A DNA stretch of 64,000 bases from Pedobacter cryoconitis (GTDB lineage Bacteria > Bacteroidota > Bacteroidia > Sphingobacteriales > Sphingobacteriaceae). The stretch's first letter is position 1. Each line of letters begins with the position of its first letter. Location of the stretch: contig NZ_JACHCC010000003.1 of assembly GCF_014207135.1 (NCBI RefSeq), positions 62,001 to 126,000 on the forward strand, given 5' to 3'. The translations under genes were made by a program, and so were the position numbers. This document shows, piece by piece, positions 41,015 to 64,000 of the stretch. Under the pieces are notes generated by a model. That model saw only the letters and a program-made list of their open reading frames with translations. It was not told the DNA's origin and did not search any database.

Positions 41015-41191
41015 TTAAAATAGAATATCATTATCACTTCCAATATCTCCGGTTGCCCTTGCCATTGAGCAACTCTGAGGAGAAAATGCTTCACAAAGTG
41101 TAGCTACTTCTAATACCAGCCTTTCTTCTGTAGAATTAGGTTTAATCAGCTCTTTTTTAGTTAGTTCTGTTTTTAGCTGTTCTTTAGTCAT
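41015..41191 (-). CDS. RiPP-like precursor peptide 1 (58 aa)
   Basis: The small gene encodes MTKEQLKTELTKKELIKPNS at its start, then TEERLVLEVATLCEAFSPQS and CSMARATGDIGSDNDILF. It is clearly homologous to the two tandem peptide genes at the other end of the island: the leader part (K-E-Q-L-K-x-E-L-x-K-K-E-L-[IV]-K-P-N-S-T-E-x-R-L-x-x-E-V-x-x-L-C-E) is nearly invariant, the segment after Cys33 varies, and the C-terminus ends in N-D-I-L-F. This conserved-leader, variable-core, conserved-tail pattern is what a precursor family should show. It is the last gene of the left operon, after the C39 peptidase. Cys33, Cys41 and several Ser/Thr/Asp/Asn residues are candidate modification sites. No GG cleavage motif is present. 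Confidence 0.85.
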   Translation of the reverse strand: MTKEQLKTELTKKELIKPNSTEERLVLEVATLCEAFSPQSCSMARATGDIGSDNDILF

Positions 41192-41258
41192 GATTTTATA
41201 GGTTAAGATTAAAAATTATTTGAGGTTTGCTTTTAAAATTATCATATAATAGGTTGTA

Positions 41259-41699
41259 TTATGGTTTAGGTTCTAAAAGAATGATCCATCCTTGTTCATC
41301 CTGGTTTTCAGAATCGCTGAAAAATTCTTTATAATCCATCGTTCGTAGCCCCTCACCGGGATCTGCAAAACTAACCAGCTGATCAGCTATATTGTAGATC
41401 ACCACATAATGATTGTTTTTCCATAACATAATACAGGGGAGTATTGCCTTATTCAATAATGTAGTATCTCTGGTATTTACGACCAGAGATTTAAAGTTTA
41501 GCTGATTTAATGCTTTAACAAGGCTATAGATAGAAACCCCATCAGGATCCATCAATACGATTTCCCGCAAATATTCCAGATTTATATGTTTTCCATAAAA
41601 ATCGGACACCATTTTAAGACAGGATAAGGCGCATTCATTATCTTTTTGTTGCCGATCAAAAGGAAAGGAATGCAGAGTTTCGTTTTTATACATTGACAA
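41259..41699 (-). CDS. Stand-alone C39-type cysteine peptidase
   Basis: The 146-aa protein is a single C39 (bacteriocin-processing) domain. Catalytic residues are in place: the Gln of DRQQKD (oxyanion hole, residues 17-18), Cys23 in DNECALSCLKMV, His97 in LWKNNHYVVIYN and Asp113 in VSFADPGEG. In most systems this domain is the N-terminus of the ABC exporter; here it is a free protein without a signal peptide. It follows the degenerate condensation-like gene by three bases and precedes precursor 1. Since the island's PCAT-like ABC protein has lost its C39 active site, this free enzyme is the likely leader peptidase, though the precursors lack a double-glycine site. Confidence 0.85.
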   Translation of the reverse strand: MSMYKNETLHSFPFDRQQKDNECALSCLKMVSDFYGKHINLEYLREIVLMDPDGVSIYSLVKALNQLNFKSLVVNTRDTTLLNKAILPCIMLWKNNHYVVIYNIADQLVSFADPGEGLRTMDYKEFFSDSENQDEQGWIILLEPKP

Positions 41700-41702
41700 T
41701 AC

Positions 41703-43010
41703 TTAGAAGATAGTTAGAAATTTTTGAAAGTTTATTCGCCATAAGTCATTAAAATCATCAATAAATCTTTTGGTGTAAACCTGTTCATTAAATAAAACTC
41801 TATAGGTCATAAGACCTTTGATATCTATACAGAGCTCGAAGTTTGCATTATGTGCTCTGATATAATCAAATCTGATTTCTGTCAATTCATCAACGGGCTC
41901 CTCAACATTTACCACATTTAAAGGAGTATAGTTCACCAGCATATTACAATTGGAAAATAAAGCTCCTACATCTATATCATACATTTGATAATTATAAATA
42001 GCATGTGTCTTATAGGTTTTAAAAAGTTCCATTTGCACACTGGTGAGAAATTCTACCCCATCCATGGAAGTGGAGAGGTTGGTCATATAGAAATCACCAG
42101 AAAAATCACCAATCTGATGGCTCACGTATTTGTTGTTTTTATAATCCATCAGAAACTGGAAATAATATTTTTTTGTATGCAGCTCGTTCATCGCTTTTAA
42201 ATAGGCAGCAACTACAAGGGTATACAAACTGAATTTTTGAAATTTAATTTCAGTATACTTCGGTATAATCAGATAGGAAGATAACTGACAAAATACAGAT
42301 CCTTCAGGTTTTGTTTCCGGAGTGTGAAGGAAGTGTTTCCTGTGGTCAAAGGTTTTGGCAGTAATGGAATGAATAAAAGCTTCATTATTGCTCAGATCTA
42401 CAATAAGCTCATTTGGTTTTACCATTCCAGGGATAATGCTATTCAGTTTATGGCTATGAAAATCGTATTCGGTCAGAAATGACTTGCGTGACTGTGTTAT
42501 ATGATGAGATACATAATTTTCAAAAGAATACAATTGAAGGGAGGCAGAATCATCTTTATATACCTTTATGAAGTCTTCTTTAAGAATGCTTAGTGCTGCG
42601 GTGTTACCAATAATATGATTGATAAACAAAATAACAACAGAGTAGTCACTACATTCATAAACAGTTCCGTAAAATAACCGCTTATTATTTACAGGATACT
42701 TGTTCAGGATATTGATTCTTTGTGTAATCTGCTCCGCTAAATTATTGTCTTCTTCAACAGTTTCAAAGTCAAGGTGGAACAGTTCCTTGTCGAAAGAAAG
42801 TTCTTTTCTGTATAAATATCCATCCTGATAAATGAGCAGGGAACGTAAAATCTCCCTTTGACTTACCAGAGAATACCAGGCATTTTCAATTTTAAGGTGG
42901 CTTTTGCTTTTTAAGCCAATGGCTATATGTAAGTATTCGGCCCCGAGGCGATCGTAGAGCTCAAATGCAGCAATTTGTTTCGGACTTACTAAATGGTTTA
43001 CATCACTCAT
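41703..43010 (-). CDS. Condensation/acyltransferase-like domain protein 2 (altered HHxxxDG)
   Basis: The 435-aa protein has the size and motif order of a stand-alone NRPS condensation (or PapA-type acyltransferase) domain. The N-lobe has QREILRSLLIYQDG (residues ~51-64; family [RH]-H-E-x-L-R), then INHIIGNTAALSILKEDFIK at 130-149 in place of HHxxxDGxS. The catalytic second histidine is kept (His132) but the flanking His is Asn131 and the D-G pair is N-T. A later stretch (FQKFSLYTLVVAAYLKAMNE, IGDFSGDFYMTNL) recalls the conserved S-L-x-x-x-L-x-A-A and G-x-[FV]-x-N-x-[LV] motifs. It may be a weak or altered acyltransferase. No adenylation domain exists in the window. Confidence 0.72.
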   Translation of the reverse strand: MSDVNHLVSPKQIAAFELYDRLGAEYLHIAIGLKSKSHLKIENAWYSLVSQREILRSLLIYQDGYLYRKELSFDKELFHLDFETVEEDNNLAEQITQRINILNKYPVNNKRLFYGTVYECSDYSVVILFINHIIGNTAALSILKEDFIKVYKDDSASLQLYSFENYVSHHITQSRKSFLTEYDFHSHKLNSIIPGMVKPNELIVDLSNNEAFIHSITAKTFDHRKHFLHTPETKPEGSVFCQLSSYLIIPKYTEIKFQKFSLYTLVVAAYLKAMNELHTKKYYFQFLMDYKNNKYVSHQIGDFSGDFYMTNLSTSMDGVEFLTSVQMELFKTYKTHAIYNYQMYDIDVGALFSNCNMLVNYTPLNVVNVEEPVDELTEIRFDYIRAHNANFELCIDIKGLMTYRVLFNEQVYTKRFIDDFNDLWRINFQKFLTIF

Positions 43011-43036
43011 AAAATTGATATTATTTTTTAATGTCG

Positions 43037-44377
43037 CTAAACTATGGGGCTATAATTATTGATAAGATTTAAAACCAGCTCTTCTTCTTTGTATTTATTA
43101 TCGATCTGGCTCATTATGGTCTCCATGTTATTTCTATAATCATTTGCTCCAAGTAATTGAACAATTTTGTTCCTGATCATTTTAACAGAGTCTTTTTTCA
43201 GATCTCCAAATAACCCTATCTTTTTGCTCGCGATTTTTCTGGCATTCCCAATCTGATCAATATCAATCGGGTAAACAAGAAGAGGGACGCCGATAGCAAG
43301 ACTCTCCTTGATAGAATTTAACCCACCGTGAGTAATAAAAATATTGGCGTTCTTAAGCATCCACAATTGAGGGACATAAGGGAAAATGTGAACGTTTGAT
43401 AATTGCCGGAGATACTTTTCTTCCCATTTCTTTTTACCCAGTGAAAAGATAAAATCAACCTCTGTGAGTTGTCCCGCCACTTTATTGAGCTTTTTCATCA
43501 GAGAAAATATATCATGTACCCTGTGCTCACCAAATACAGTTCCGAAAGAGATATATACTACTTTCCTGCCTTTGGTAACAATTCTATCCAAACGATCATC
43601 AATAGTTATATCAATACGGTTTTTGTCTACAAAAAGCCCTAGATAATGATGATTGTCATGTTGGGGAGTATTAAAGAACTCGAGCTCAATAGGTGAAGTC
43701 AATAAACTGGGAATATTTTTGAAAATCAGGTCAAAGAAGTTTAACTCATCGAGTTTATAATGCGCTGGCAAACCCTCTTCCTTTATTTTTCTGTTTAAAA
43801 CAGAAAGTTCATCCTGTCCAAGGTAAAAGGTCTTATAGAATATCTGTCTTGTATTTTTTGATAATAACCTGAAAAAATGCTCCAAACGGATTTTTGTTTT
43901 CTGGTGAGGCATTGATCTGCTGTTCAGATAAGGATGACTGGCATTTCCAATACTGGATAACATAGTCTCCAGGTAAAAAAATTTGATACCTAAAGATTTT
44001 ATTCGTGTATATAATAAGAGAAAGTCAGTTCCGGCAAAAGTATCGGCAATAATTACGGTTGGTTTAATGGTATCGACCGCTGCATTAAGCTCACCTTTTC
44101 TTAAATCATAAAATAGTGCACTGCTCTTATTTTTGAGCTTATCAAAATAATTATAATCAATTTTCATCTGCCGGGCAAGAGAAATATCTGCATCTACCCC
44201 AAATGGAAAGGTATCAGAACTATAGAAATGAAAATGATTATTATTAACGTGATTATAAAAATCTTTCGGCATGAAGTAAAAAACCTCATACCCGTTGTTT
44301 TTAAGGATTTTTGCTATTTTAAACGACGCGTTGAGATGACTCAATGAAGGGTATTGGATGATTAATACTTTATTCAT
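43037..44377 (-). CDS. UGT-type (GT1/MGT-like) glycosyltransferase
   Basis: From MNKVLIIQYPSLSHLNASFK (alternative start 6 bp upstream) the 446-aa protein is a GT-B glycosyltransferase of the family that decorates natural products. The N-lobe has SHLNASFKIAKILKNNGYEV with the early acceptor-domain pattern, the C-lobe has KVVYISFGTVFGEH (residues ~275-288), and the nucleotide-sugar-binding signature ANIFITHGGLNSIKESLAIG then VPLLVYPIDIDQIGNARKIA (~355-395), including HGG and the D-Q-x-x-N-A pair. It overlaps the PCAT-like ABC gene by 8 bp. It most likely attaches a hexose to the mature peptide. Confidence 0.88.
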   Translation of the reverse strand: MNKVLIIQYPSLSHLNASFKIAKILKNNGYEVFYFMPKDFYNHVNNNHFHFYSSDTFPFGVDADISLARQMKIDYNYFDKLKNKSSALFYDLRKGELNAAVDTIKPTVIIADTFAGTDFLLLYTRIKSLGIKFFYLETMLSSIGNASHPYLNSRSMPHQKTKIRLEHFFRLLSKNTRQIFYKTFYLGQDELSVLNRKIKEEGLPAHYKLDELNFFDLIFKNIPSLLTSPIELEFFNTPQHDNHHYLGLFVDKNRIDITIDDRLDRIVTKGRKVVYISFGTVFGEHRVHDIFSLMKKLNKVAGQLTEVDFIFSLGKKKWEEKYLRQLSNVHIFPYVPQLWMLKNANIFITHGGLNSIKESLAIGVPLLVYPIDIDQIGNARKIASKKIGLFGDLKKDSVKMIRNKIVQLLGANDYRNNMETIMSQIDNKYKEEELVLNLINNYSPIV

Positions 44378-46469
44378 ATACACTCGGTTTGTTTTGCTCG
44401 AAGGTTTTGTTAAGAAAGGAAGGCGCAGTAGGGTGGGGATGACACAAAATAATAATAGTAATGTCGTCTTTTATCTGGTATAAAAATTCTTCCAGTATGA
44501 TTGTGCTGGTAGCTTCTGTTTCTAAATACTGCTCATCTATAAGCAGTATTCCGGCTCCTTGATACAGTGCCCTGGCAATAGCTATTATAATCTTGTCAAT
44601 TGTAGTTAATCCGTAACCGGAAGGACCTATAACCGTCGCCAGAGATTCAGGGAAGGATTTGATGTAATTATCCAGCTTATACTTAAATATAAACCTGAGT
44701 AAAGCCTCATGTATATGGGTGACATCATTAAATGCAATATTATATGCGATGGATTCATTGAAAATAAATGGCTCACACAATAAGGTGGTCACCATCTTTT
44801 TCCTTGTTGCACTGGCTATTTCCTGATAATTGAAATTGTCATTAATGATGATACGATAATTTTCAGAAGATTCTGGCTGACTAAATGTAAGAGTTAAATC
44901 TTTTCTGCTTTTGAAATCAACAGGCTGCAGATAATTCACTTCTCCTTTTATTGCTTTGAAATAAAGTGCTGGTTCTCCACTTTCAGCAGCGTAAATTTTA
45001 ATGCTTTCGGGATCTTCTGCGAAAACAGGATTGCTTGTTTTTTTAATGGAAGTAGCTTGGTTCCGGACTTCTTTATTGTTTTCAAAATATCCTGTTTTTA
45101 ATTCATCATATTCCAGCATACTAAAGGATAGCCTGTTTAGTAAAAATGCAAAACAAGCACTTAAGATTAGTGAAAGTGAAAATTGTCCGGGCATGACTTC
45201 TCTGCTCTTTAAGCCCTGAAGGTTAATCAATAAAATCAGGAAGAAAATAGAAACAAATGATACATTTTTATAGGTTACAAATCTGTTCCTTATTTTTTTT
45301 AACTGATAAAGCTGTTCCTGATAACTATAGTTTTCTTTCTTGAATTTGAGAAGGAATTCATTTTCCCTGTTTGAATCTGTAATAGCATTTATACTTTCTA
45401 ACATAGAATTAAAGCCACTTCTTAGCACTGTCTGATATTGCGAAAGCTTACTTTTTTTATCAGTAATATTAACTTTTGTTTTATTGACGATAAAAAAAAT
45501 GATCCCTGATAATAAAAAAAGACAGCTAAAGGTTTTTAAATCAGTAGTCAATAGATAAGAGCTAATCAGGAGCAGAAATAGTATTGTTGAAAAAGTATGC
45601 AGTAATAGGCTGAAAGACTGTGTGTTGTCGCGAGTCAGTTCCATGTAATTACCCCATAAATATTTACGGTTCTTTTCTTTAGATAGATCGGTTACAGTAT
45701 TGAAAATGTTAAGGCTGAAATTATTAAGCTGATAGCTGGAACTAATATAAGAACTTACATTTTTGAAATTTTCATAGAAAATCTGTGTAATTAGGAGGGT
45801 TGTCAGTAAGACGAAAATTTTTATTAATATGTCAACTGGTAGCTTTCCGTCAATGGAAGGAAGCCAGGAATCGATCAGTGATCTGAGCATGAAAAGCAGA
45901 GTAATAGCGGCACTGGCCTGAATTACATTTATAGTCGCAGCTGTGGCAAATATCGGCCATTTCCCTGCCATAGGTTGTAATAACCATTTAAAGATTTGTT
46001 TACTTTCTGGCGTGTCTGATTCCTGTTTGGTTAGCTCCATGGTCAAATAGACCCCAGAGTCCCATAATTGTTCAAGTGCTGCTTTAGAAAGAGAAAGCAT
46101 TCCTTTCATCGGATGGTAAAGTATATATGCTGGACCGGTTTTATGCTGATCAACTTTACACAATACTACATAGTTGTTTTTTCCAAGTTCAGGATCATCA
46201 ACAACCAGTATAACAGGATGAAGAATCGAATTTATTGTTTCAAAACCTGCCTGCCAGCATCCTACCTCAAAACCTTCTTCTTCGGCTAGCTTCAGCATTC
46301 CTTTTAAAGAATCTGAATCTTTCTGTACATGATGATAATTAGCAGGAGCACGTTTGCCTGCTATTCTGTTGTAATAGCGCAACAACCATAAAACACAAGC
46401 TTCTCCTGCACCAGATTTATTTTTTATAATAAAACTTATACTCTTCCACTTTCTTTTGATACCAGCCAT
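44370..46469 (-). CDS. Degenerate PCAT-like protein (dead C39-like domain, TM domain, NBD without Walker A)
   Basis: The 699-aa protein keeps the outline of a peptidase-containing ABC transporter. Residues ~1-135 align to a C39 domain, but D-C-G-x-A-C reads G-A-G-E-A-C (Ala21 for Cys), the His position is Asn99 (NNYVVLCKV) and the Asp is His119 (LYHPMKG). A five-to-six-helix TM domain follows (~165-470). The nucleotide-binding domain (~490-690) has no Walker A loop, has L-T-T-I-D for LSGGQ and C for the Q-loop Gln (LLCEPFIFNESIAYNI), yet retains a Walker B-like ILLIDE and the downstream His. It is unlikely to hydrolyse ATP. It could be a leader-binding membrane scaffold paired with the intact ABC exporter. 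It overlaps the glycosyltransferase gene. Confidence 0.82.
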   Translation of the reverse strand: MAGIKRKWKSISFIIKNKSGAGEACVLWLLRYYNRIAGKRAPANYHHVQKDSDSLKGMLKLAEEEGFEVGCWQAGFETINSILHPVILVVDDPELGKNNYVVLCKVDQHKTGPAYILYHPMKGMLSLSKAALEQLWDSGVYLTMELTKQESDTPESKQIFKWLLQPMAGKWPIFATAATINVIQASAAITLLFMLRSLIDSWLPSIDGKLPVDILIKIFVLLTTLLITQIFYENFKNVSSYISSSYQLNNFSLNIFNTVTDLSKEKNRKYLWGNYMELTRDNTQSFSLLLHTFSTILFLLLISSYLLTTDLKTFSCLFLLSGIIFFIVNKTKVNITDKKSKLSQYQTVLRSGFNSMLESINAITDSNRENEFLLKFKKENYSYQEQLYQLKKIRNRFVTYKNVSFVSIFFLILLINLQGLKSREVMPGQFSLSLILSACFAFLLNRLSFSMLEYDELKTGYFENNKEVRNQATSIKKTSNPVFAEDPESIKIYAAESGEPALYFKAIKGEVNYLQPVDFKSRKDLTLTFSQPESSENYRIIINDNFNYQEIASATRKKMVTTLLCEPFIFNESIAYNIAFNDVTHIHEALLRFIFKYKLDNYIKSFPESLATVIGPSGYGLTTIDKIIIAIARALYQGAGILLIDEQYLETEATSTIILEEFLYQIKDDITIIILCHPHPTAPSFLNKTFEQNKPSVYE

Positions 46470-46485: not shown

Positions 46486-46665
46486 TCATCTACCGTAAAT
46501 AGCCTTAAACCAGGGACTCCAATCTATCGTGTCTTCATCAACAATATGATGCTGCTGATGAATTTCATTAATATTTAGTAATTTATCGTCTTGTTGTGTA
46601 TTGCTTTTACTTTGCATCAACTCTTTAAAGTCGTCAAGGGATAGTTTGGTTTTTGACTCTTCCAT
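46486..46665 (-). CDS. Candidate second-type precursor or accessory peptide (59 aa)
   Basis: The frame starts MEESKTKLSLDDFKELMQSK and ends DWSPWFKAIYGR, 16 bp before the PCAT-like gene on the same strand. Its N-terminal half resembles leader peptides (K-L-S-L-D-D-F-K-E-L-M), but it lacks the KPNSTE and NDILF motifs of the three homologous precursors. The C-terminal W-S-P-W-F-K-x-I-Y-G-R is aromatic-rich, a plausible core for radical or oxygenase modification. It is the first gene of the left operon. It may be a second substrate or a small carrier-type partner of the PCAT-like protein; the assignment is inference. Confidence 0.6.
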   Translation of the reverse strand: MEESKTKLSLDDFKELMQSKSNTQQDDKLLNINEIHQQHHIVDEDTIDWSPWFKAIYGR

Positions 46666-55565: not shown

Positions 55566-57372
55566 AGTATAGAATATTTGGTTTTTTAAGAAATAACGGG
55601 TTATGCTTTTTTAAATAACTCTTTAAATAAATTTTTAATGGTTTAATATTGGTTAATTGATTCTCTTCGTGCATAAATATATTAAAACTATTTAAATAAT
55701 ATATTTCATTACTGTTAGTAGATTCTTTTAGTAACTTTACCCAAGAGTAGATTTGAGTGTTTAATAAGTTATCTTCATTATTTACCATAATACTTAGTAT
55801 AAGATTTTCTCCCGGTTCAAATTGTGGATCTTTGATGTTCATTAATAGAATGCGCTCAATGGTTTCCATTACTGTGGCATTAAGCACAGCGGTTGATAAG
55901 GAATGAAACTGGGAAAAGTCCATCTCGGGACAGGATGCAGGTTGTGCACTATTAAGAATTAAATGAATGCATTCCAGCGTATACTTTTTCCAGTCAGTAA
56001 GGTTTTTGTTAAAAAGTGCCACTTTGGCTTTATTGGTCAGCATCTGGTAGACCACTAGGAATGCAATTTCAGCATTTGGATAGGATAACAGATTTATAGC
56101 ATGCTGAATACCCCTTTCAATGATCTGACTACTGGCTGCATAATTCTTCTTTTTATATTCCAGATAAGATTTAACTAATGTGCAGGAAGTTTGAATAAAA
56201 TCCTGTTCAAAACTGTTTTCTTTAAAAACTGAAGCCATCCTGTCTGCTTCCTTTGCACATAAGACCGACATATTTGGCAGATTGCTTTTTGATAGCTTAA
56301 AAGCATCATTATTTTCTTCAATCACGATATTAAGATAGGGTCTGTTTATCGCTGCTGAATTAGTGCAAATAATGCTTTCTAAGAGAATGTCAACTTGTTT
56401 TTTAATGTTAATCCTGTTCTTTACTCCAAAGTATGGAGATTCCTTCTCTTCTGCTCCGTGATCGTGCCTGGTGAAATGATTGATGTATTGCGGGATGGTG
56501 TTTTTGTACAAAGGACACACTATACGCTGGTCTGCAGTATAACCTCCACATCCTATAAGTAAAATACAATTCTCACAGGCTATATTTATTTCCAGTGATC
56601 CGGTGGTTTTTTTTAAAACTGAACTATCACAAACTAACCCTGAAAAAGGCAGCTCTTTCAAAAAGGCGAAACTGGAATTGATCAGTGAAAGCGAATACGT
56701 ATTCCTGAAGAAATTTATTTTTGAAAAATGATTTTTAAAGAAATCTTCTTTATAGGTATTACAGGAGTATTGAGTGATATTGTCTTCTTCAAAGCTGGAT
56801 TTAAGTGCTCCTTCTTTTATAAGGTGCTGTTTGTGAATTTGTTCTGCGATGTTTTTTTTGTCGTCTTTATATTCGCTTAAGCTAAGGTAATCCTGATCCT
56901 GGAGGGAGAATTTTAACGTGAAATAGCGTATTTTTTTGAACTGTGTATTTTGAACGGTTCTTTGTTTAAGAAAAGAAAGAATGTTGATGTGTTCCTTGTC
57001 CGGATTAATAAAAAGGAAGGCTAGTTGCGTTACCTTATGCAAATTGGCAAATGAATTTAAGCGGTGAATAAATTGATCATCTAACTCGTTATCAATAACA
57101 ATGGTCAATTTATCAAATACCTTCAGCCTTTCAATTAAGCTGTTTTTTTCATCCTGGTTTTCAGGAACAAGAATACCTTTATTGATTAATTCATAGAGCA
57201 AATCTTTTTTTAGCCTGTGGAATTGGCCGGAATCTATTAGCCTTTTATTCAGATCGTTTAAAGCGGCCCATTTCTTTAGTTTACAGTTAAAAAGTAAAAA
57301 TGATGACGGCTCATTTAAATCTTTCGTTACAATACAAAAGGAAGAGATTTTTAAAGATGCTGATTCTATCAT
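55552..57372 (-). CDS. Large protein resembling a degenerate radical SAM/SPASM maturase
   Basis: The 606-aa protein has the outline of a Bacteroidota peptide maturase but not its catalytic motif. The N-terminus (FLLFNCKLKKWAALNDLNKR ...ELINKGILVPENQ) looks like the winged-helix RRE/PqqD-like start of such enzymes. A barrel-like middle follows (LTIVIDNELDDQFIHRLNSF ANLHKVTQLAFLFINPDKEH) with no CxxxCxxC. A SPASM-like set of cysteines appears as C266-x2-C269-x5-C275-GG-x8-C286 (ENCILLIGCGGYTADQRIVC). The C-terminal ~220 residues are helical, TPR-like (SLLSYPNAEIAFLV region). It is best described as a pseudo-radical-SAM partner of the true maturase; this is inference. It precedes the outer-membrane part of the operon. 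Confidence 0.55.
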   Translation of the reverse strand: MIESASLKISSFCIVTKDLNEPSSFLLFNCKLKKWAALNDLNKRLIDSGQFHRLKKDLLYELINKGILVPENQDEKNSLIERLKVFDKLTIVIDNELDDQFIHRLNSFANLHKVTQLAFLFINPDKEHINILSFLKQRTVQNTQFKKIRYFTLKFSLQDQDYLSLSEYKDDKKNIAEQIHKQHLIKEGALKSSFEEDNITQYSCNTYKEDFFKNHFSKINFFRNTYSLSLINSSFAFLKELPFSGLVCDSSVLKKTTGSLEINIACENCILLIGCGGYTADQRIVCPLYKNTIPQYINHFTRHDHGAEEKESPYFGVKNRINIKKQVDILLESIICTNSAAINRPYLNIVIEENNDAFKLSKSNLPNMSVLCAKEADRMASVFKENSFEQDFIQTSCTLVKSYLEYKKKNYAASSQIIERGIQHAINLLSYPNAEIAFLVVYQMLTNKAKVALFNKNLTDWKKYTLECIHLILNSAQPASCPEMDFSQFHSLSTAVLNATVMETIERILLMNIKDPQFEPGENLILSIMVNNEDNLLNTQIYSWVKLLKESTNSNEIYYLNSFNIFMHEENQLTNIKPLKIYLKSYLKKHNPLFLKKPNILYYDQP

Positions 57373-57384: not shown

Positions 57385-57639
57385 TTATTCACTCAAATGG
57401 CTGTCCACGGTTTCAGCCAGGTAGTCTATACTATTAAAGAAGGTAATGTCAATTTCATCATCATTAAATTCTATAGAGAATTCATCTTCAAGTGTGGTAA
57501 CAAAAATCAGGGCAACCATGGATTCTGAGGTAATAGCTCTCAACTTCTCATCATCGCTGATCTCTAGCTTGTTCAATTCAGAATAATCACTATCGATCAC
57601 TTCATTTAATATAGTTAATATTTTATCTCTGGTTTTCAT
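57385..57639 (-). CDS. Acyl carrier protein-like
   Basis: The 84-aa acidic protein folds like an ACP: helix 1 (KTRDKILTILNEVIDSD), then SDDEKLRAITSESMVALIFV with Ser40 at the position of the phosphopantetheine-bearing Ser (motif E-S-M instead of D-S-L), and TTLEDEFSIEFNDDEIDITF. Hydrophobic spacing of helix 2 (MVALIFVTTLEDEF) matches the family. It is a candidate carrier of an acyl or amino-acyl group. There is no ketosynthase, acyl-AMP ligase or phosphopantetheinyl transferase in the window, so these would have to be supplied elsewhere. It sits between the prolyl-hydroxylase-like gene and the pseudo-maturase gene. Confidence 0.8.
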   Translation of the reverse strand: MKTRDKILTILNEVIDSDYSELNKLEISDDEKLRAITSESMVALIFVTTLEDEFSIEFNDDEIDITFFNSIDYLAETVDSHLSE

Positions 57640-57640
57640 C

Positions 57641-58201
57641 TTATTTCTTTTTTTTAAATTTCATGGCCAGGCTGAACCTGGATAATTTGCATATTCTGGT
57701 AGGTATAGTTCCCATATGTTCAATATTACCAGGGAAAATAACGACCCTGCCAGGTGTTGGAAGGACCGCAAGGCGGGATTGTTGGTTCTCATAAAAGATA
57801 GTTTCCCCACCGTATTTATAGTTCCATGTTTTGTTTACATAATATAGAACAGTCAGATCTGACTGTTCCGGATCACAATCAAAATGTGGGTACTCTACAT
57901 CTCCATAACTACAAAGATTAATGTAGCATCTGTTTAATTGATAATCAATTCCCTCGCTATAAGTTTGATTAAAGACCTCCCGGAGTTTTTTTCCTATAAA
58001 AGTGTCTGTTTCGAAGGTATCCGGAATGAAATCAGTACTGAAGATGGGGAATTCATCATATGATAAGCTTTTTTCCTTCTTTCTGAAAGAAAGACTGTTT
58101 ACATAATCATAAAATACTTCTACCTCATCTTCAGAAAAAGCCCCATCGATGATATGTATTTCTTTACCGTCTATTATTTCAGTCCTATTTTGCATAACCA
58201 T
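57641..58201 (-). CDS. 2-oxoglutarate/Fe(II) oxygenase, prolyl-4-hydroxylase type
   Basis: The 186-aa protein is a compact P4H-type oxygenase: YGDVEYPHFDCDPEQSDLTV gives the HxD pair (His106, Asp108), GRVVIFPGNIEHMGT gives the distal His162, and the basic residue for 2-oxoglutarate is one of Arg169/Arg175. Family members hydroxylate peptidyl Pro, Asp or Asn, or free amino acids. It follows the JmjC-like gene by two bases and precedes the ACP gene by one. An ATG two codons downstream is an alternative start. Two distinct oxygenases in one operon suggest two hydroxylation or related oxidation steps on the peptide. Confidence 0.88.
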   Translation of the reverse strand: MVMQNRTEIIDGKEIHIIDGAFSEDEVEVFYDYVNSLSFRKKEKSLSYDEFPIFSTDFIPDTFETDTFIGKKLREVFNQTYSEGIDYQLNRCYINLCSYGDVEYPHFDCDPEQSDLTVLYYVNKTWNYKYGGETIFYENQQSRLAVLPTPGRVVIFPGNIEHMGTIPTRICKLSRFSLAMKFKKKK

Positions 58202-58203: not shown

Positions 58204-59031
58204 TTATTTTTGAGTTTCCATTTCTATAAACCCTTCTTTGATAATCATTTCAATCTTACTTAAATTGTTTCTGTCATTATCATTTCTAAAATAGTTCCTT
58301 ACCAGGTCATAATTTGTTTCATTGATAAAGTTCTCTGTAAGGGAAAGGCTCCATTCCAGGTTGATGACCTGATGATAACAGTCGCCGGGTACAAAAATCA
58401 TATCTCCTGCATTTTGAATACATGTTAATGGTTTATAAGGCAAGTTTATAACATTACTCCAGTCGTTTTGATCAGGGACGATCTGATATGCAGACAGGTC
58501 TTTTTTGATAGCCTCCGAATAAATGGCAGGATATATTAGCCACAATTTTTTACCTCTTAAAAGATAATTCCAGGCACTGCTCCACCAGACATCACGATGA
58601 ATCTGGCTTCCTGTTCCCGCGTTTCCGGCGTAAATCCAGCTCAGGTTAGTCTTTGGGGGGGCTAATTTTGTGCCAGCGTACCAGCAGTTAAAAGGCTCAG
58701 GGGTTTTGTAGTCATTTTTAATCTCCGGGTTTAGGAAACCGCTGGTTTTAAAGTAAAGCCCGGCCGAAGGACTATTGAGATAATCTGCATAAGAAAGAAA
58801 TAATGGGGCTGAACCTTCATCATTCTCAACTTTTTCTTTTTTGACTAATGTTGCTGATAAGTATTCCTGTGTCCATTTTGTTTTAATCTGCATTTCCTGA
58901 AATGCATGAGTAAAGTTGACTGGTTTACCGGCATATCCATAAGTGTCATTGAAGTATTTCTTCGTTAACGGGGCAATATCATCTGTTGCAACTCCAGTAG
59001 TTTGTCTTAATAAGTCTGTTAAATTCTGCAT
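58204..59031 (-). CDS. JmjC/cupin-8 type 2-oxoglutarate oxygenase
   Basis: The 275-aa protein has the JmjC fold: NLSWIYAGNAGTGSQIHRDV WWSSAWNYLLRGKKLWLIYP (residues ~129-168), with Fe ligands His145 and Asp147, and NAGDMIFVPGDCYHQVINLE (207-226) with His220. RGKKLWLIYP is the typical lysine-containing strand that binds 2-oxoglutarate. Homologues hydroxylate Asp/Asn, Lys, His or Arg side chains in proteins and peptides. It is tightly packed (2 bp) between the S8-DUF1611 fusion and the prolyl-hydroxylase-like gene. Acting on Asp, Asn or Thr residues in the precursor core is the most natural idea, but not shown by sequence. Confidence 0.9.
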   Translation of the reverse strand: MQNLTDLLRQTTGVATDDIAPLTKKYFNDTYGYAGKPVNFTHAFQEMQIKTKWTQEYLSATLVKKEKVENDEGSAPLFLSYADYLNSPSAGLYFKTSGFLNPEIKNDYKTPEPFNCWYAGTKLAPPKTNLSWIYAGNAGTGSQIHRDVWWSSAWNYLLRGKKLWLIYPAIYSEAIKKDLSAYQIVPDQNDWSNVINLPYKPLTCIQNAGDMIFVPGDCYHQVINLEWSLSLTENFINETNYDLVRNYFRNDNDRNNLSKIEMIIKEGFIEMETQK

Positions 59032-59033: not shown

Positions 59034-60932
59034 TTACCCTTTTGAAAATTTGTTTATAATAATGTCTATTATTTTCTGGCTGTTATCTTTGTTCTTGATA
59101 TTGAATGTGGGGGAGTCTAAATTTTCATTGAAATAATTGAGTTTATCCTGATACTCCATTTCATCAAGCTGCCTGTATGATACACGGACCTGGTTGTTAA
59201 AGTGAATGGTATATTCAAAAGGAGTTAAAACATAAAACAAGACCTCACAATTTACAAATGCCTTTATAACATCGATAGTTCTTCTGATATAATCCAGACT
59301 GTCATTGGGACTTATCGTACAGACCAATGCGTCAGGGTAAAATGCCTTAACATAGCTCAGCATCTCTGCTGCATTAGAATCATTCATTGGATGCTTCGGT
59401 AAAATAGATCCCTGGCTTCCTGTGATAATAATATCTGGTTTAGTGTGTTCCTCTATCATCTGAGTCAGAAAACGCAAGGATTTATTCCATTCCATAATGT
59501 CCACATCAACAGTACCATTATGTCCAATTGGGAAGGTAATATCTGCCCCTAAAACAATACCTTGTGGTTCTGTTGCAAGATGGGATACTTTATATCCATT
59601 TTCCTTCAGTAACTCTTTTAAAATAAGCTGTGTGGTGAATTTACCTTGTTTTTTATTGGTTCCAACCACACAGATTGAAGGGGATTTTAGAACAGTATGC
59701 TCCATAGAAGCATATAGGTTTTCCTTGTCCTGCTTAGCGAACGCAGTTAAAAAAACTTTTCCGGTATAGGTTGTGGTTGAATCTGATATGACAGAATGGA
59801 TTAAGTCATTTACAGACCTGTCCCACACAATAAAATTTTTGTTTCTTTTTACACATTCTTTGATCAAAGAATAACCCTGATAAGAATTTTGGTCAAGCAG
59901 TTTATCCAAAAAATAACCAATGATAATAGTATCAAATGTGTTATAGGTCTGCTCTTCCAGCTCTCCAAACGAATATGGGATACCTTGTTTTTCAAGAAGG
60001 CTTATGCTCTTATCTAGTTTGATTGATCTTAAATTACCTATTGCTGCTGTAAGCTGATAGGGGAAGAGTTGTGGGAATTCTAAAATAGATTGCATCTCCT
60101 TCTCTTCAAATGGGTAGATGGCCACTTTAGAGATACAGGGAGCAGGTCTTAAAGAGTTATATAGCTCACCCGGAGAAAGCGCAGGGGTATTAGTGTGGTT
60201 CAGTTCATTTATTTTAGAATCGTGTTTAGTCAGGCTGATAATTGAAGGATCTGAATTTTTCAGAATCCATTTATTTAAAGACTCGATGTTATCCCATTGG
60301 TTTTCCAGTTTGGCCTTGCAGATAATTCCTGAAAAATGAGCTGTAGCAAGGCTTGTTCCTACACTGAACCTAAAGGTATTGCCAGGATAGGCAACCCTTT
60401 GAAAGCCTCCTTTGGCCAGGATATTGGCTGATCTGTTTTCAAGTTTTCTGAATTTGTACTTACTTTCTACAATACCCTGACCTATCCCCAGAACTGAAGT
60501 GAAATGAGCCGGGTAGCACAATTTATCATGTAAATAGTGGACTGCTGCAACCAGTATAACTCCTTGTTTGGAAGCTCTGTCGCAGGCAAGCCTTAATTCC
60601 TGAGAAGGATCGTTTGTTCTTATGCCCATGCTGATATTAATCACTTCGATATCATGATCATCCAAAAGATAATTAATAGCCCTTACCAGCAGCGCTTCAC
60701 TAATCCGCCCGTTTTCGGCTTCCAGCTTTACTACTTCAGTCTCAATAAAAGGTGCATGTTGTACAATTATTGATAAAATACCTGTACCATGCCCTTTGAT
60801 ATCATTAAAACTATTCTCTATCGTGCTTATTTCTTTGGCAAGATTCTCTAATAGCGTTATTCCTGTAATATGATGATGATTAAATCTTTTATGAGTATGG
60901 TCTACTCCCGTATCAATTATTCCGATTTTCAA
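59034..60932 (-). CDS. Subtilisin-like protease fused to a DUF1611-like P-loop domain
   Basis: The 632-aa protein has two parts. Residues ~1-220 are a minimal S8 subtilase with the full triad: Asp7 (IGIIDTGVDHTH), His48 (DIKGHGTGILSI) and Ser194 (SVGTSLATAHFSG). There is no signal peptide or propeptide, so it is cytoplasmic. Residues ~265-630 match my memory of DUF1611/DgcN-like proteins: an N-lobe (KVAIYPFEEKEMQSILEFPQ), then a P-loop GTNKKQGKFT (424-433), ATEPQGIVLGADITFP, DIIITGSQGSILPKHPMNDS and PDALVCTISPNDS. DUF1611 proteins include ATP/CoA-using N-acetyltransferases. The fusion could couple peptide cutting to nucleotide-dependent modification of the new end. It follows the radical SAM gene by 8 bp. 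Confidence 0.85.
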   Translation of the reverse strand: MKIGIIDTGVDHTHKRFNHHHITGITLLENLAKEISTIENSFNDIKGHGTGILSIIVQHAPFIETEVVKLEAENGRISEALLVRAINYLLDDHDIEVINISMGIRTNDPSQELRLACDRASKQGVILVAAVHYLHDKLCYPAHFTSVLGIGQGIVESKYKFRKLENRSANILAKGGFQRVAYPGNTFRFSVGTSLATAHFSGIICKAKLENQWDNIESLNKWILKNSDPSIISLTKHDSKINELNHTNTPALSPGELYNSLRPAPCISKVAIYPFEEKEMQSILEFPQLFPYQLTAAIGNLRSIKLDKSISLLEKQGIPYSFGELEEQTYNTFDTIIIGYFLDKLLDQNSYQGYSLIKECVKRNKNFIVWDRSVNDLIHSVISDSTTTYTGKVFLTAFAKQDKENLYASMEHTVLKSPSICVVGTNKKQGKFTTQLILKELLKENGYKVSHLATEPQGIVLGADITFPIGHNGTVDVDIMEWNKSLRFLTQMIEEHTKPDIIITGSQGSILPKHPMNDSNAAEMLSYVKAFYPDALVCTISPNDSLDYIRRTIDVIKAFVNCEVLFYVLTPFEYTIHFNNQVRVSYRQLDEMEYQDKLNYFNENLDSPTFNIKNKDNSQKIIDIIINKFSKG

Positions 60933-60940: not shown

Positions 60941-62389
60941 TTATTTATTTGAGTGACCTGTATTTACTGCTGCCGCTGCGGTAGGCACATTGATCGTTTC
61001 TGGTTTATTGATCATTCTAAGGTATTGCTCCCGGATATAACTTTCTGTTTTATACTTCCATTCTGTACATTGGGGTACGGTATTTTTAATAGCCTCAAAA
61101 GAGCAGGAGATCTTATCGCAAACAGGTAAATATTTACAGTTTCTACAGACATCATTGTGTGAGTATCTGTTAAACGCGCTGTACTTATCAAATACTTTTG
61201 GGTCATAGCTATCAAATACTGAGCTTGGCGCTTTAGTATCGTCATGAATTGTTTCCCAGCATTTATGAATAAAACCATTAGGGTCTACAACCAGGCTTAT
61301 AGGGGATGCCCATGTTGCACAGGTGGACTGATAGGAGGGAAGATCCCATTTCAGTCTGGCCGATTTGGTATTGTGCAGGTTGGCCCAATTATTAAATCTT
61401 TCCAGCAGGTTGAGACGGAAATTTTGCTTAAAGTCAAAAAAAGCATCAACATGCATCCGGATATCTTTTTCATCCTCATCTAAAGCTATTTCTTCATAAG
61501 ACCTCAGCCATGCGGGATCAAAACTGAATTGCTTATACTTATTCGGCCAGATTCCAAAGCTCTGAAAATCATCCAGCATATCTGATGATGAATTGGCAAC
61601 TTCATGATCAACATTCATTCTCACCAATACATTGATGCCTTCTGGTATTTGAGAAAGGTTTTCTAATATCCTGTAATAGTTCTTGGCATTCTTTTGCTTA
61701 AGAGGTCTTTTTTTATCATGGATTTCTCTGGCTCCGTCAATAGTAACCTGTATTAATTCAACTTTGTTATCGATCAGTTTTTTAACATTGGTTTCTGTTA
61801 AATAAATTCCGTTTGTAATAATCTTTGCTGTATAGGTCAGGTTATACTTTTCTGCAAGCTCAATCAAGCCAACAGACATATCCTCAATTGCCTTTACATT
61901 GAGCAGTGGCTCTCCTCCATACCATGTAATGGAAAGGGTATGGATTTTTTGTTCTGCCTTTCGGATAATTTCATCAATATAAATGACAGTTTGTTTTTTA
62001 ACCTTATCATCTTTTAGTGTATGATTTGGCTTAACGAATTCAAAACAATAAGAGCATCCCATGTTACATGAAATTGTCGTCCCAATGGTAAGGTATATTG
62101 TTCCGGTATTCTTAAACTGATGATCAGTACTGTTTTTCTCAAAGATCTCAATCATGTTCTTCTCTGAGTCAATGATATATTCTTTGGAAATTAAATGCTC
62201 AAGTAATAATAAATTTTCAGGATAAACCTCTTTTTGAAAATATTTCAGGCAGGATAATTCTGATAAAAGTTTGCCTTCCTCGGAGTTTAATATTTCTATA
62301 CCTCCAGTAAGTGTATTGAAAATTAAAAACTCTTCCCTTTCATCGATTGGGATTAGAACATTGTATGGGCTGGATTTGAAAAGTTGCAT
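60941..62389 (-). CDS. Radical SAM/SPASM peptide maturase
   Basis: The 482-aa protein has an N-terminal leader-recognition-like domain (1-90; FLIFNTLTGGIEILNSEEGK, LLSELSCLKYF), the radical SAM cluster motif C108-x3-C112-x2-C115 (ISCNMGCSYCFEF), the following WYGGEPLLN and ITNGIYLTE strands, and a C-terminal SPASM region with cysteines 357, 377, 415, 418, 424, 429 and 441 for one or two auxiliary clusters. Enzymes of this class form C-C, C-S, C-O or C-N cross-links or epimerise residues in ribosomal peptides. It is the first enzyme gene after the two tandem precursor genes, separated by a hairpin. The crosslink type cannot be read from sequence. Confidence 0.94.
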   Translation of the reverse strand: MQLFKSSPYNVLIPIDEREEFLIFNTLTGGIEILNSEEGKLLSELSCLKYFQKEVYPENLLLLEHLISKEYIIDSEKNMIEIFEKNSTDHQFKNTGTIYLTIGTTISCNMGCSYCFEFVKPNHTLKDDKVKKQTVIYIDEIIRKAEQKIHTLSITWYGGEPLLNVKAIEDMSVGLIELAEKYNLTYTAKIITNGIYLTETNVKKLIDNKVELIQVTIDGAREIHDKKRPLKQKNAKNYYRILENLSQIPEGINVLVRMNVDHEVANSSSDMLDDFQSFGIWPNKYKQFSFDPAWLRSYEEIALDEDEKDIRMHVDAFFDFKQNFRLNLLERFNNWANLHNTKSARLKWDLPSYQSTCATWASPISLVVDPNGFIHKCWETIHDDTKAPSSVFDSYDPKVFDKYSAFNRYSHNDVCRNCKYLPVCDKISCSFEAIKNTVPQCTEWKYKTESYIREQYLRMINKPETINVPTAAAAVNTGHSNK

Positions 62390-62469
62390 ACTTAATTTGG
62401 TTAGGTGACGTCAACAAATAAGGATTAGTATTGCATATACGTAGGGCCAGGGCAGATTTTGAAGCAAAG

Positions 62470-62500
62470 AATACAATAGCATATTACATGCTATTGTATT
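62470..62500 (-). terminator. Hairpin between the precursor genes and the maturase gene (attenuator-like)
   Basis: AATACAATAGCAT (62470-62482) pairs perfectly over 13 bp with ATGCTATTGTATT (62488-62500) around a five-base loop. It lies 14 bp past the stop of precursor 2 and about 80 bp before the radical SAM start. On the minus strand the stem ends in TATT followed by CTTTGCTT, a weak U-rich tail. Partial read-through would give many precursor transcripts per enzyme transcript, a common arrangement in RiPP operons. Confidence 0.6.
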
Positions 62501-62514
62501 CAGATTACAACGTC

Positions 62515-62688
62515 TTAGAATAAGATGTCGTTTTCACCTCCGGTGTTGCCATTAGCTCTTGCAGTGTTACCTGTGCAGTCAAAAGTTTCACATAGTGATT
62601 CAACTTCCATTGCCAGTCTTTCTTCTGTTGAGTTTGGTTTTACCAGCTCCTTTTTCAGCAGCTCAGCTTTTAATTGTTCTTTGTTCAT
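62515..62688 (-). CDS. RiPP-like precursor peptide 2 (57 aa)
   Basis: The peptide reads MNKEQLKAELLKKELVKPNS, TEERLAMEVESLCETFDCTG, NTARANGNTGGENDILF. It is nearly identical in the first 33 residues to precursor 3 and closely related to precursor 1 at the far end of the island. The leader is amphipathic and charged; KPNSTE and the E-V-x-S-L-C-E segment are conserved, and the last residues N-D-I-L-F are invariant. Between them the residues F-D-C-T-G-N-T-A-R-A-N-G-N-T-G form the probable core, rich in Thr, Asn, Gly and with Cys38. It lies directly upstream of the radical SAM gene with a hairpin between. Confidence 0.9.
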   Translation of the reverse strand: MNKEQLKAELLKKELVKPNSTEERLAMEVESLCETFDCTGNTARANGNTGGENDILF

Positions 62689-62718
62689 GGTTTTAAGGAT
62701 TAAGTGGTTAGATAAATA

Positions 62719-62737: not shown

Positions 62738-62751
62738 GTCTTTTATATATC

Positions 62752-62925
62752 TTAAAATAAGATATCGTTTTCGTGGCCCGTGTTCCCACTTGCTCTTCCA
62801 AGGTTTCCTGTACAGTCAAAGCTTTCACATAGTGATTCAACTTCCATTGCCAGTCTTTGTTCTGTAGAGTTTGGTTTTACTAACTCTTTCTTTAGTAGTT
62901 CTTCTTTTAATTGTTCTTTGTTCAT
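62752..62925 (-). CDS. RiPP-like precursor peptide 3 (57 aa)
   Basis: The peptide reads MNKEQLKEELLKKELVKPNS, TEQRLAMEVESLCESFDCTG, NLGRASGNTGHENDILF. Compared with its neighbour, the leader differs at two positions, while the segment after C-T-G differs at several (N-L-G-R-A-S-G-N-T-G-H against N-T-A-R-A-N-G-N-T-G-G), the pattern of a fast-evolving core between a constrained leader and a constrained C-terminal E-N-D-I-L-F. It is first in the central minus-strand operon. A Thr/Asn/Ser-rich core suits the two oxygenases and the glycosyltransferases nearby. Confidence 0.9.
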   Translation of the reverse strand: MNKEQLKEELLKKELVKPNSTEQRLAMEVESLCESFDCTGNLGRASGNTGHENDILF

Positions 62926-63062
62926 TGTTTTAAGAATTAATGGTTAAAAAAAATTGAATTAAAGATTTTTACAGCTTAAATAATCAGAGACTGTCCATTG
63001 GAAAATGATTGCCGCAGGCATTACTGATATTCAAAATATGTTGTACTGGCAGGTAGCGCTTT

Positions 63063-63081
63063 AAAAACCGATCCGGTTTTT
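63063..63081. terminator. Symmetric A/T-tailed hairpin between the S41 gene and the precursor genes
   Basis: AAAAACCG-ATC-CGGTTTTT is a perfect 8-bp inverted repeat that gives a T-tail on either strand. It lies about 140 bp past the S41 stop and about 140 bp before the first precursor gene, so it can end the S41 transcript and isolates the precursor promoter, which should lie within 62926-63062. The remaining intergenic DNA shows no gene. Confidence 0.65.
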
Positions 63082-63223
63082 GATAGTATTTTTAATTGTG
63101 TTTGTTTTAATACTTATTTCGTTTGCAGCCAGGATTTATTTAACAGTTCTTTGTGCATCATGTAAAAGTCAGGTAATTGAATATTTGGTTAATTAGTAAT
63201 TTTAATATACCCTATTATTTATT

Positions 63224-64000
63224 TCATAAATCAATTCTGCTGACCGCGGCTTGTAGCACCTTGTCTTTATAAGGCGCCAGATCTTCGACTTTTTCCAGCT
63301 TCACGCAGATGTCAGGAGTAATCCCTTTAGTCTCTATAGACTTTCCATTAACTAAAATTTTTCCGGGAGAGATTGCATTTGTTGTAAAAGAAGCATCCTC
63401 ATCGGGTAATACTACCTGATAGGTAAATGACAGCGCACCGATCGAATTCTCACTGCCAATAATTTTCACATCACGTAGTTCGCGTTTTAAACAGCTTGCC
63501 AGTAACTCTGTAACACAGGCACTGCTTCTGTTGATAATAAATGATATTTTTCCGTCTTTTCTGAAGTTCAGGGGAGAAAGATTTCCGTTTACTATAATAG
63601 AATCCAATTTTCCTGTAGCTACTTCTTCGAAATCAAAGTATTTAAAAGATTTATGGACAATTGAGGACAGTAGTCGGGCCCCTGCAAGGAAATCTCCTCC
63701 TCCACAATTCCTTAAATCAAGAACAAGATTTTTTTTGGTATTAATACTGTCCAGATTGGAGATAAACGTGGTAACAGAATGATCATTTATACTATTAATT
63801 TTGTAATACGCAGTTGAATCATTTAGAAATACATAGCCATCCCCCTTGTTTCCACTGTATTTTTTAGATATGATATACTTAGGTTTTAAAATGTAACTGA
63901 TCTCATTAAGACCTCCTTCGGGCCTTGCAAAGTTTATTGTCATTTTTTCTCCTGGTGCATTCTTCAGCGACTGGTTAAGACGGTCAATGGTGAAATCCTG
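63224..64000 (-). CDS. PDZ/S41-family peptidase (5' part beyond the window edge)
   Basis: The frame is open to the right window edge, so the N-terminus is missing; at least 258 residues are present. The first residues (DRLNQSLKNAPGEKMTINFA RPEGG) are the end of a PDZ domain. The S41 core follows: YVFLNDSTAYYKINSINDHS, KKNLVLDLRNCGGGDFLAGA RLL, ISFIINRSSACVTELLASCL, SIGALSFTYQVVLPDEDASF, ISPGKILVNGKSIETKGITP. The usual nucleophile segment (S-A-S-x-E) reads S-S-A-C-V-T-E, and the Lys of T-[FY]-G-K-G is not visible (N-S-I-G-A-L), so activity may be altered. Retained D-L-R-x-C-G-G-G is normal for the fold. It is upstream of the precursors, in the same direction but separated by a terminator. Confidence 0.85.
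   Translation of the reverse strand, partial: QDFTIDRLNQSLKNAPGEKMTINFARPEGGLNEISYILKPKYIISKKYSGNKGDGYVFLNDSTAYYKINSINDHSVTTFISNLDSINTKKNLVLDLRNCGGGDFLAGARLLSSIVHKSFKYFDFEEVATGKLDSIIVNGNLSPLNFRKDGKISFIINRSSACVTELLASCLKRELRDVKIIGSENSIGALSFTYQVVLPDEDASFTTNAISPGKILVNGKSIETKGITPDICVKLEKVEDLAPYKDKVLQAAVSRIDL

What the first reader, a model, noticed from the sequence alone, without database searches (positions are those of the whole stretch)
41015..64000. RiPP-like island combining radical SAM, S8-DUF1611, two oxygenases, ACP, condensation-like proteins and glycosyltransferases
Seen: three homologous short peptide genes bracket a set of co-directional, tightly packed genes for a radical SAM/SPASM enzyme, a subtilase-P-loop fusion, JmjC and P4H oxygenases, an ACP, an outer-membrane barrel, condensation-like proteins, three glycosyltransferase-like proteins, ABC proteins and a C39 peptidase. 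Known: radical SAM/SPASM enzymes, C39 peptidases and ABC exporters are RiPP hallmarks, while ACP and condensation-type folds belong to acyl/NRPS chemistry. Inference: a multiply modified ribosomal peptide, crosslinked or epimerised, hydroxylated and possibly glycosylated and acylated. I know of no described class with this set. Grasp-with-spasm, lanthipeptide and GG-Bacteroidales families each lack most of these parts.
Basis: partly seen in the sequence, partly recalled or inferred. Interest (0 to 1): 0.93.

Follow-up and report, generated by a model that had tools for sequence, protein, structure and literature searches.

The report
Ornithine peptide island with cysteine protease
This Pedobacter gene island encodes three copies of a recently named but structurally unsolved kind of short bacterial peptide together with enzymes predicted to crosslink, hydroxylate and trim it, and, just outside the window, one predicted to turn its arginine into ornithine; in 18 compared islands the presence of that last gene matches exactly whether the peptides carry an arginine, so gene content likely foretells the chemistry of a product nobody has yet described.

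Summary
The peptides and most of the genes are real. All three peptides exceed the NCBIfam cut-off for the FlmA ("DD(I/V)LF") RiPP family, the radical SAM protein matches FlmE/OhkG (737 bits), the P4H-like oxygenase matches FlmC, and a peptide arginase lies about 1 kb beyond the window. So this is not an undescribed class but a member of an orphan family published in November 2025, product unknown. New from comparing 18 clusters (39 precursors): every core has two cysteines; arginase presence matches core arginine (26/26 precursors with, 0/13 without; three clusters have Lys at that place); FlmC presence matches a basic residue after the second Cys (23/23 versus 0/16). Both patterns rest on about two evolutionary events each, and a distant relative breaks them in part. 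An S41-fold protease with PDZ domain occurs in 17 of 18 clusters with catalytic Ser replaced by Cys, Lys lost and an Asp-x-His kept; it is my best candidate for processing the C-terminal DILF tag, a question the published work left open. Roles of ACP, condensation-like and glycosyltransferase proteins stay inferred. As a whole the gene set recurs only in a P. cryoconitis genome, at a different place.

The parts
62752..62925 (-). FlmA-family precursor 1 (57 aa), core CESFDCTGNLGRASGNTGHENDILF
   Evidence: NF052472 62.1 bits, cut-off 30
62515..62688 (-). FlmA-family precursor 2 (57 aa), core CETFDCTGNTARANGNTGGENDILF
   Evidence: NF052472 67.4 bits
41015..41191 (-). FlmA-family precursor 3 (58 aa), core CEAFSPQSCSMARATGDIGSDNDILF, far end of island; no counterpart found in the P. 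cryoconitis cluster stretch
   Evidence: NF052472 45.2 bits
62469..62501 (-). hairpin between precursor 2 and radical SAM gene, likely attenuator or RNA-stability element
   Evidence: RNA fold of 62390-62514 z -4.1, sequence; hairpins in the same interval of several other clusters, by eye
60941..62389 (-). radical SAM/SPASM maturase, FlmE/OhkG family; predicted thioether-forming
   Evidence: NF052473 737 bits, cut-off 500; CxxxCxxC and SPASM Cys invariant
59034..60932 (-). S8 subtilase (QhpE-like) fused to DUF1611/TIGR04066 P-loop domain; predicted leader peptidase plus unknown P-loop function
   Evidence: PF00082, PF07755; NF049966 101 bits and TIGR04066 85 bits, both under cut-off; D7/H48/S194 invariant in 14 rows
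58204..59031 (-). JmjC 2OG oxygenase; nearest solved relative JMJD6
   Evidence: PF02373; phmmer to 3ld8 4.7e-22; H145 D147 H220 invariant in 15 rows
57641..58201 (-). FlmC-family 2OG-Fe(II) oxygenase
   Evidence: NF052475 271 bits, cut-off 240; H106 D108 H162 invariant in 10 rows
57385..57639 (-). acyl carrier protein-like, phosphopantetheine Ser kept (SES motif)
   Evidence: PF00550 17.2 bits, below cut-off 20.8; NF005480 27.8 bits, below 72; alignment
55552..57372 (-). 606-aa protein, no family; N-terminal ~77 residues weakly resemble the radical SAM N-terminal region
   Evidence: hhalign prob 25
55194..55565 (-). 123-aa small protein, no family over cut-off, possibly exported
52756..55164 (-). 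outer-membrane beta-barrel (OMP_b-brl_3) with CarbopepD_reg domain; export, uptake or immunity
   Evidence: PF14905 302 bits
51353..52732 (-). stand-alone Condensation-domain protein, HHxxxDG decayed to NPIIADI
   Evidence: PF00668 95 bits
49534..51372 (+). 612-aa protein without assigned family, recurrent next to the ABC exporter in relatives
47856..49523 (+). MsbA-type ABC exporter, Walker A kept
   Evidence: PF00664, PF00005
47037..47816 (+). GT2-like glycosyltransferase
   Evidence: PF00535 23.4 bits, cut-off 23.3
46486..46665 (-). 59-aa peptide, C-terminal 19 residues identical in P. cryoconitis; possible second precursor
44370..46469 (-). C39-like/ABC protein, probably degenerate (C39 Cys and Walker A not seen, by eye)
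   Evidence: PF03412 30 bits, no ABC_tran
43037..44383 (-). MGT/UGT-type glycosyltransferase
   Evidence: PF00201, PF04101, PF06722
41703..43010 (-). condensation-like protein (NHIIGNT in place of HHxxxDG)
   Evidence: no Pfam hit; profile grouping
41259..41699 (-). stand-alone C39 peptidase
   Evidence: PF03412 98 bits
63224..64000 (-). S41-fold protease, 3' part (full gene to window coordinate 65056, 610 aa): catalytic Ser replaced by Cys514, Lys lost, D291xH293 kept, PDZ domain ~305-396. Peptide arginase follows at window coordinates 65071-66000, outside the window
   Evidence: PF03572

Best explanation
The island encodes an FlmA-family ("DD(I/V)LF") RiPP whose two-cysteine cores are predicted to be thioether-crosslinked by the radical SAM enzyme, hydroxylated by two 2-oxoglutarate oxygenases and converted from arginine to ornithine by a peptide arginase just outside the window, then likely cut from the leader by the subtilase, exported, and trimmed at the DILF tail by an S41-fold protease whose catalytic serine is replaced by cysteine. 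Shown by sequence: family membership, conserved Fe, 4Fe-4S and S8 residues, the Cys-for-Ser switch, and the co-variation of arginase and FlmC with core residues. Inferred: each reaction, their order, that the leader motif [EQ]L[VIL][KEQ]P is the docking site, that FlmC acts at or near the ornithine/lysine after the second Cys, and that ACP plus condensation-like proteins add an acyl group in those clusters that keep both.
Against: No product is known. The co-variation rests on about two changes for each gene, was made and tested on the same 18 clusters, and G846 and G909 carry nearly the same five precursors each; a hoped-for held-out set gave none (1 of 394 genomes, the known one). Among more distant relatives G539 and G710 fit (no arginase, no core Arg), but L044 has no arginase in its 21 kb locus and an Arg in 1 of 4 precursors, and Lys after Cys2 without FlmC; L016 has an Arg but its contig is too short to tell; no precursor was called in G742, L018 and L069. 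L011 lacks a recognisable Cys-type S41. G846 and G909 have neither Arg nor Lys yet keep the S41 protein, and their JmjC hit is short (220 aa). Thioether chemistry rests on family resemblance: PapB model 95 bits against cut-off 340. Foldseek superpositions of the S41 model are modest as a whole (TM by query length 0.28-0.47 in the 50 rows listed).
Confidence: 0.6

Rival explanations
1. The S41-fold protein is a dead protease used as PDZ-type chaperone, receptor or self-protection for the DILF tail; maturation proteolysis is done by the S8 subtilase (and here C39) alone and DILF stays on, or is removed by a housekeeping protease.
For: Ser and Lys of the S41 dyad are gone; in the 12 of 24 places shown of a review of RiPP proteases 'S41' stood only inside DOIs (PMC10885120); S8 triad is conserved.
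Confidence: 0.3
2. The radical SAM enzyme does not make thioethers but another change (epimerisation or carbon-carbon crosslink), and the two Cys serve as a disulfide or metal site.
For: Best other curated neighbours TIGR04463, Clo7bot, CefB, PapB are all far below their cut-offs; solved relatives by profile include 5wgg (recalled as CteB) but also sulfatase maturases.
Against: Two core Cys in every one of 39 precursors, and those neighbours are mostly maturases of Cys-bearing peptides.
Confidence: 0.3
3. Two systems lie side by side: an FlmA cluster (51-66 kb) and a second peptide cassette (59-aa peptide, degenerate C39-ABC, MGT, condensation-like, C39; 41-46.7 kb), with flmA3 a stray copy.
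For: The 59-aa peptide's C-terminus is identical in P. cryoconitis; the 59-aa peptide and degenerate ABC gene were called in only 1 of 17 other clusters.
Against: 20 of 20 genes stay together in the P. cryoconitis stretch while 0 of 15 flanking ORFs are shared with the window's flanks; C39 also occurs in cluster L006; a third FlmA sits at the far end here.
Confidence: 0.35
4. An ordinary further copy of a known family, with arginase/Arg and FlmC/basic-residue matches being shared ancestry only.
For: Two changes each on the tree, only one forced by starred branches for arginase; L044 breaks both rules in part.
Against: Lys stands at the same ungapped position in three close Chryseobacterium clusters without arginase, and G926, first to branch in that half of the tree, keeps both arginase and Arg: this fits a functional link.
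Confidence: 0.3

Closest known systems
flm cluster of Flagellimonas meridianipacifica (FlmA1-3, FlmR; PMC12703449; locus L010)
   Same: FlmA precursors, radical SAM, FlmC, JmjC, S8-DUF1611, ACP-like, S41-Cys, arginase, MsbA-type ABC, condensation-domain protein
   Different: flm has its own AcpS, a 293-aa protein of unknown family, and a MacB-like permease nearby; the window's island has an OMP barrel, 606- and 612-aa proteins, glycosyltransferases, a C39 module and one core Arg per precursor instead of two
ohk cluster of Ohtaekwangia koreensis (OhkA1-2, OhkR; locus L012)
   Same: radical SAM, S8, JmjC, arginase, S41-Cys, ABC, ACP-like protein
   Different: no FlmC found, no DUF1611 hit on the S8 protein, ACP-like protein without the phosphopantetheine Ser, Arg lie between the two Cys
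Ranthipeptides and SCIFF-type maturases (PapB, CteB)
   Same: SPASM radical SAM with Cys-bearing core
   Different: below PapB cut-off (95 vs 340 bits); I recall no arginase, oxygenase or S41 set there
QHNDH maturation (QhpD radical SAM, QhpE subtilase)
   Same: S8 peptidase partnered with a crosslinking radical SAM enzyme (pairing recalled)
   Different: QhpE model 101 bits under cut-off 165; DUF1611 fusion absent there (recalled)
Clostridial peptide maturation system with TIGR04066 and TIGR04068 (CcpM)
   Same: TIGR04066-like C-terminal half
   Different: 85 bits under cut-off 200; no S8 part in that 361-position model
C-terminal processing proteases and CPAF (family S41)
   Same: S41 core, PDZ domain, N-terminal signal-like stretch

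Membership tests
FlmA / DD(I/V)LF-type RiPP | precursor ending in [DN]D[IV]LF and matching NF052472 | tested here: met
   3 of 3 over cut-off
FlmA / DD(I/V)LF-type RiPP | peptide arginase PF12640 close by | tested here: met
   1 genome match, 309-aa ORF just outside the window
FlmA / DD(I/V)LF-type RiPP | FlmE/OhkG radical SAM protein | tested here: met
   737 vs 500 bits
FlmA / DD(I/V)LF-type RiPP | core Arg converted to Orn | not testable with these tools
   needs co-expression and MS
NCBIfam NF052474 peptide arginase, FlmR/OhkR model | score over curated cut-off 350 | tested here: not met
   322.9 bits; filed only as a PF12640 peptide arginase
FlmC 2OG oxygenase NF052475 | score over cut-off, H-x-D...H | tested here: met
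   271 vs 240 bits; invariant in 10 rows
Ranthipeptide (thioether) RiPP | Cys-to-carbon thioether in product | not testable with these tools
   no product; invariant core Cys only
Ranthipeptide (thioether) RiPP | PapB/CcpM/SCIFF maturase model over cut-off | tested here: not met
   94.6/340, 71.7/500, 57.3/425 bits
S41 serine peptidase | Ser nucleophile and Lys base | tested here: not met
   Cys and Ala at those columns
S41 serine peptidase | S41 fold and PDZ domain | tested here: met
NRPS-type acyl transfer on a RiPP | ACP with phosphopantetheine Ser | tested here: met
   SES motif; Ser kept in 11 of 15 ACP-bearing clusters; ACP itself below Pfam cut-off
NRPS-type acyl transfer on a RiPP | condensation HHxxxDG | tested here: not met
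   own NPIIADI and NHIIGNT; HH kept in flm, G687, Chryseobacterium, Maribacter
NRPS-type acyl transfer on a RiPP | adenylation domain in the island | tested here: not met
   none among 20 island proteins scanned
Grasp-with-spasm | ATP-grasp ligase | tested here: not met
   none among 20 island proteins scanned
GG-Bacteroidales radical SAM system | TIGR04148 maturase over cut-off | tested here: not met
   50 vs 300 bits

The most novel reading that the evidence does not exclude
The conserved DILF tail is a follower read by the PDZ domain of a new cysteine-histidine type of S41 protease, and the thiol acyl-enzyme is a transpeptidase: it cuts before the tail and joins the new C-terminus to an amine of the peptide (ornithine or, in arginase-less Chryseobacterium, lysine), making a lactam outside the cytoplasm. 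This would be a RiPP class finished by a tail-specific protease with a switched nucleophile.
Probability: 0.12. Interest if true: 0.88.

Novelty: new variant of a known kind. Interest (0 to 1): 0.6.

Why it matters
The DD(I/V)LF peptides are an orphan family: their published description says that core, cleavage sites and the role of the conserved tail are unknown (PMC12703449, sections 2.1 and 3 seen). The comparison gives testable answers: which protease should take the tail, which residue FlmC should touch, and why arginase can be lost (Lys encoded instead in three clusters). A cysteine version of S41 would be new to me as a catalytic type; one literature search for it listed one unrelated paper. 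A P. cryoconitis genome carries the same gene set, and strains of that species can be engineered (PMC12181424, passages seen); whether the engineered strain carries the island was not checked.

Tried and rejected
Undescribed class: rejected once NCBIfam matched FlmA, FlmE/OhkG and FlmC and PMC12703449 was found. GG-Bacteroidales and grasp-with-spasm: rejected (membership rows). Pseudo-radical-SAM identity of the 606-aa protein: only its N-terminal part resembles FlmE (prob 25), left open. Glycosyltransferase identity of the 612-aa protein: no PDB sequence match at E<=1, model too poor to search. A first regular-expression reading of S41 paralogues was unusable and was replaced by profile alignment: of 18 loci, 16 gave a row, the cluster's own among them; 12 of the 15 others were readable at the nucleophile column. 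Chitinophagaceae as held-out set: no new cluster. Phage and plasmid collections: matches in 18 and 55 records, each under 60% identity.

Papers: the searches showed, in their listings, one paper on this family (PMC12703449). Most listed papers were not opened; five of the six, some on peptide arginases, are known to me only as listings. Supplements of PMC12703449 (gene tables) were not seen, so its authors may already list the S41, S8, JmjC or ACP genes.

Rows dropped before counts: of 514 relatives the best 80 were returned, and of those I used 11 (L006-L015, L017; L007 is the P. yulinensis stretch also fetched as G484). G687 has two radical SAM copies, counted once. G539, G710, G742, L016, L018, L044, L069 were examined but kept out of the 18-cluster tables, being below or far from the FlmE cut-off. 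One L010 precursor was not read by the pattern and was read.


Full report
What is there. The window is contig C3:62001-126000 of a 6.0 Mb genome. The next 18 kb add the rest of an S41-fold protease (610 aa) and a 309-aa peptide arginase; a gene on the other strand that I read by eye as an unrelated repeat protein follows, so the island ends near window coordinate 66000.

Identity. The three peptides score 45, 67 and 62 bits against NF052472 FlmA_fam_RIPP (cut-off 30), the radical SAM protein 737 against NF052473 FlmE/OhkG (500), the P4H-like oxygenase 271 against NF052475 FlmC (240). The arginase scores 322.9 against NF052474 (350, so below) and is over the Pfam PF12640 cut-off. PMC12703449 (seen: abstract, introduction, sections 2.1, 2.2, 2.5, conclusion and search passages; not seen: 2.3, 2.4, supplements) describes DD(I/V)LF precursors FlmA1-3 and OhkA1-2 and shows that FlmR and OhkR convert their core Arg to Orn; it leaves the product, the cleavage sites and the role of the DD(I/V)LF tail open.

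Distribution. FlmE at E<=1e-80: 1 of 395 genomes drawn across the phylum, the window's own, 7 of 399 in the own family, 4 over cut-off, 6 of 173 in the genus of G785, a Chryseobacterium, 1 of 394 in the family of G790, a Chitinophaga. With a named genome scan this gave 18 clusters including the window's. Called in all 18: precursor, radical SAM, S8, JmjC-type and S41-type proteins (for the 17 relatives; L011's S41-type hit is weak and lacks the motif). The P. cryoconitis cluster matches in 20 of 20 genes at 51-89% identity while 0 of 15 ORFs beside it match the window's flanks (41 kb and 13.6 kb; the rest of the genome not tested): the set behaves as a unit that sits at different places.

Co-variation. 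In 39 precursors from 18 clusters the core always carries two Cys. Arginase-bearing clusters (13) have a core Arg in 26 of 26 precursors; arginase-less clusters (5; no PF12640 match genome-wide at E<=0.001) in 0 of 13. In L008, L009 and G874 Lys stands at the ungapped place of the window's Arg. FlmC-bearing clusters (12) have Arg or Lys after the second Cys in 23 of 23 precursors, FlmC-less ones (6) in 0 of 16. The tree of the radical SAM protein needs two changes for each trait, so independent events are few and a sign test cannot reach significance; ten of the 13 and ten of the 16 negative precursors come from two near-identical clusters (G846, G909). Distant relatives: G539 and G710 agree with the arginase rule, L044 breaks both rules in part, L016 cannot be judged, and no precursor was called in G742, L018, L069. 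I infer that arginase supplies a side-chain amine at one place, that Lys can stand in for it, and that FlmC acts at or near that residue.

ACP and condensation-like proteins. An ACP-like gene is in 15 of 18 clusters and keeps the phosphopantetheine Ser in 11; the four ohk-type clusters (L012, L013, L014, L017) have lost the Ser in the alignment, and their S8 proteins are short (373-390 aa), with no DUF1611 hit in the one scanned, L012. A dedicated AcpS lies in the flm (L010) and G687 clusters beside the ACP, which argues that the ACP is loaded there. Condensation-like proteins occur in at least 7 clusters; HH is kept in flm, G687, Chryseobacterium and Maribacter but lost in the window's Condensation-domain copy. 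Acylation is therefore plausible for the family and doubtful for this strain.

Verdict. A real, intact-looking member of the orphan FlmA family with an accessory set that recurs as a whole only in P. cryoconitis among the 18 clusters (single parts recur elsewhere). The family was known; I did not find its Cys-type S41 protein or the gene-to-residue matches in the papers seen (searches, mostly listings).

Noticed in passing
window 62469-62501 (-): Perfect hairpin after the last precursor gene and before the radical SAM gene; strong hairpins of unrelated sequence lie in the same interval of PCRY (G707), G687, L006, L008, L009, L010, L015, G874 and G926, by eye; G846 and G909 show none of note.
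   Followed up: partly
window 60941-62389, C-terminus: The radical SAM protein ends in a conserved tail NTGHSNK (HQTHANK in ohk types; His and final Lys nearly invariant), which resembles the precursor stretch GNTGHEN.
   Followed up: partly
window 46486-46665 (-): 59-aa peptide whose last 19 residues are identical in P. cryoconitis; no family; might be a second precursor or signal.
   Followed up: partly
L012 15846-16118, L013 15808-16062, L014 15831-16097, L017 15840-16115: ACP-like proteins that lost the phosphopantetheine serine, in clusters whose S8 protein is short and, where scanned (L012), lacks the DUF1611 domain.
   Followed up: partly
L010 14439-15320, L012 11462-12322 and relatives: Conserved ~285-aa protein in 8 clusters (grouped by eye), without Pfam or NCBIfam match over cut-off in the two members scanned; absent from the window.
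   Followed up: partly
L133 (G926) 5575-7500: S8-DUF1611 gene appears as three separate open frames; possibly broken.
   Followed up: no
G000 (whole genome): 40 Condensation-domain matches, including very long NRPS frames on contig C1: an NRPS-rich strain.
   Followed up: no
L131, L132 (G846, G909): Chryseobacterium-group clusters with five tandem precursors each, without arginase, FlmC, or any core Arg/Lys.
   Followed up: yes
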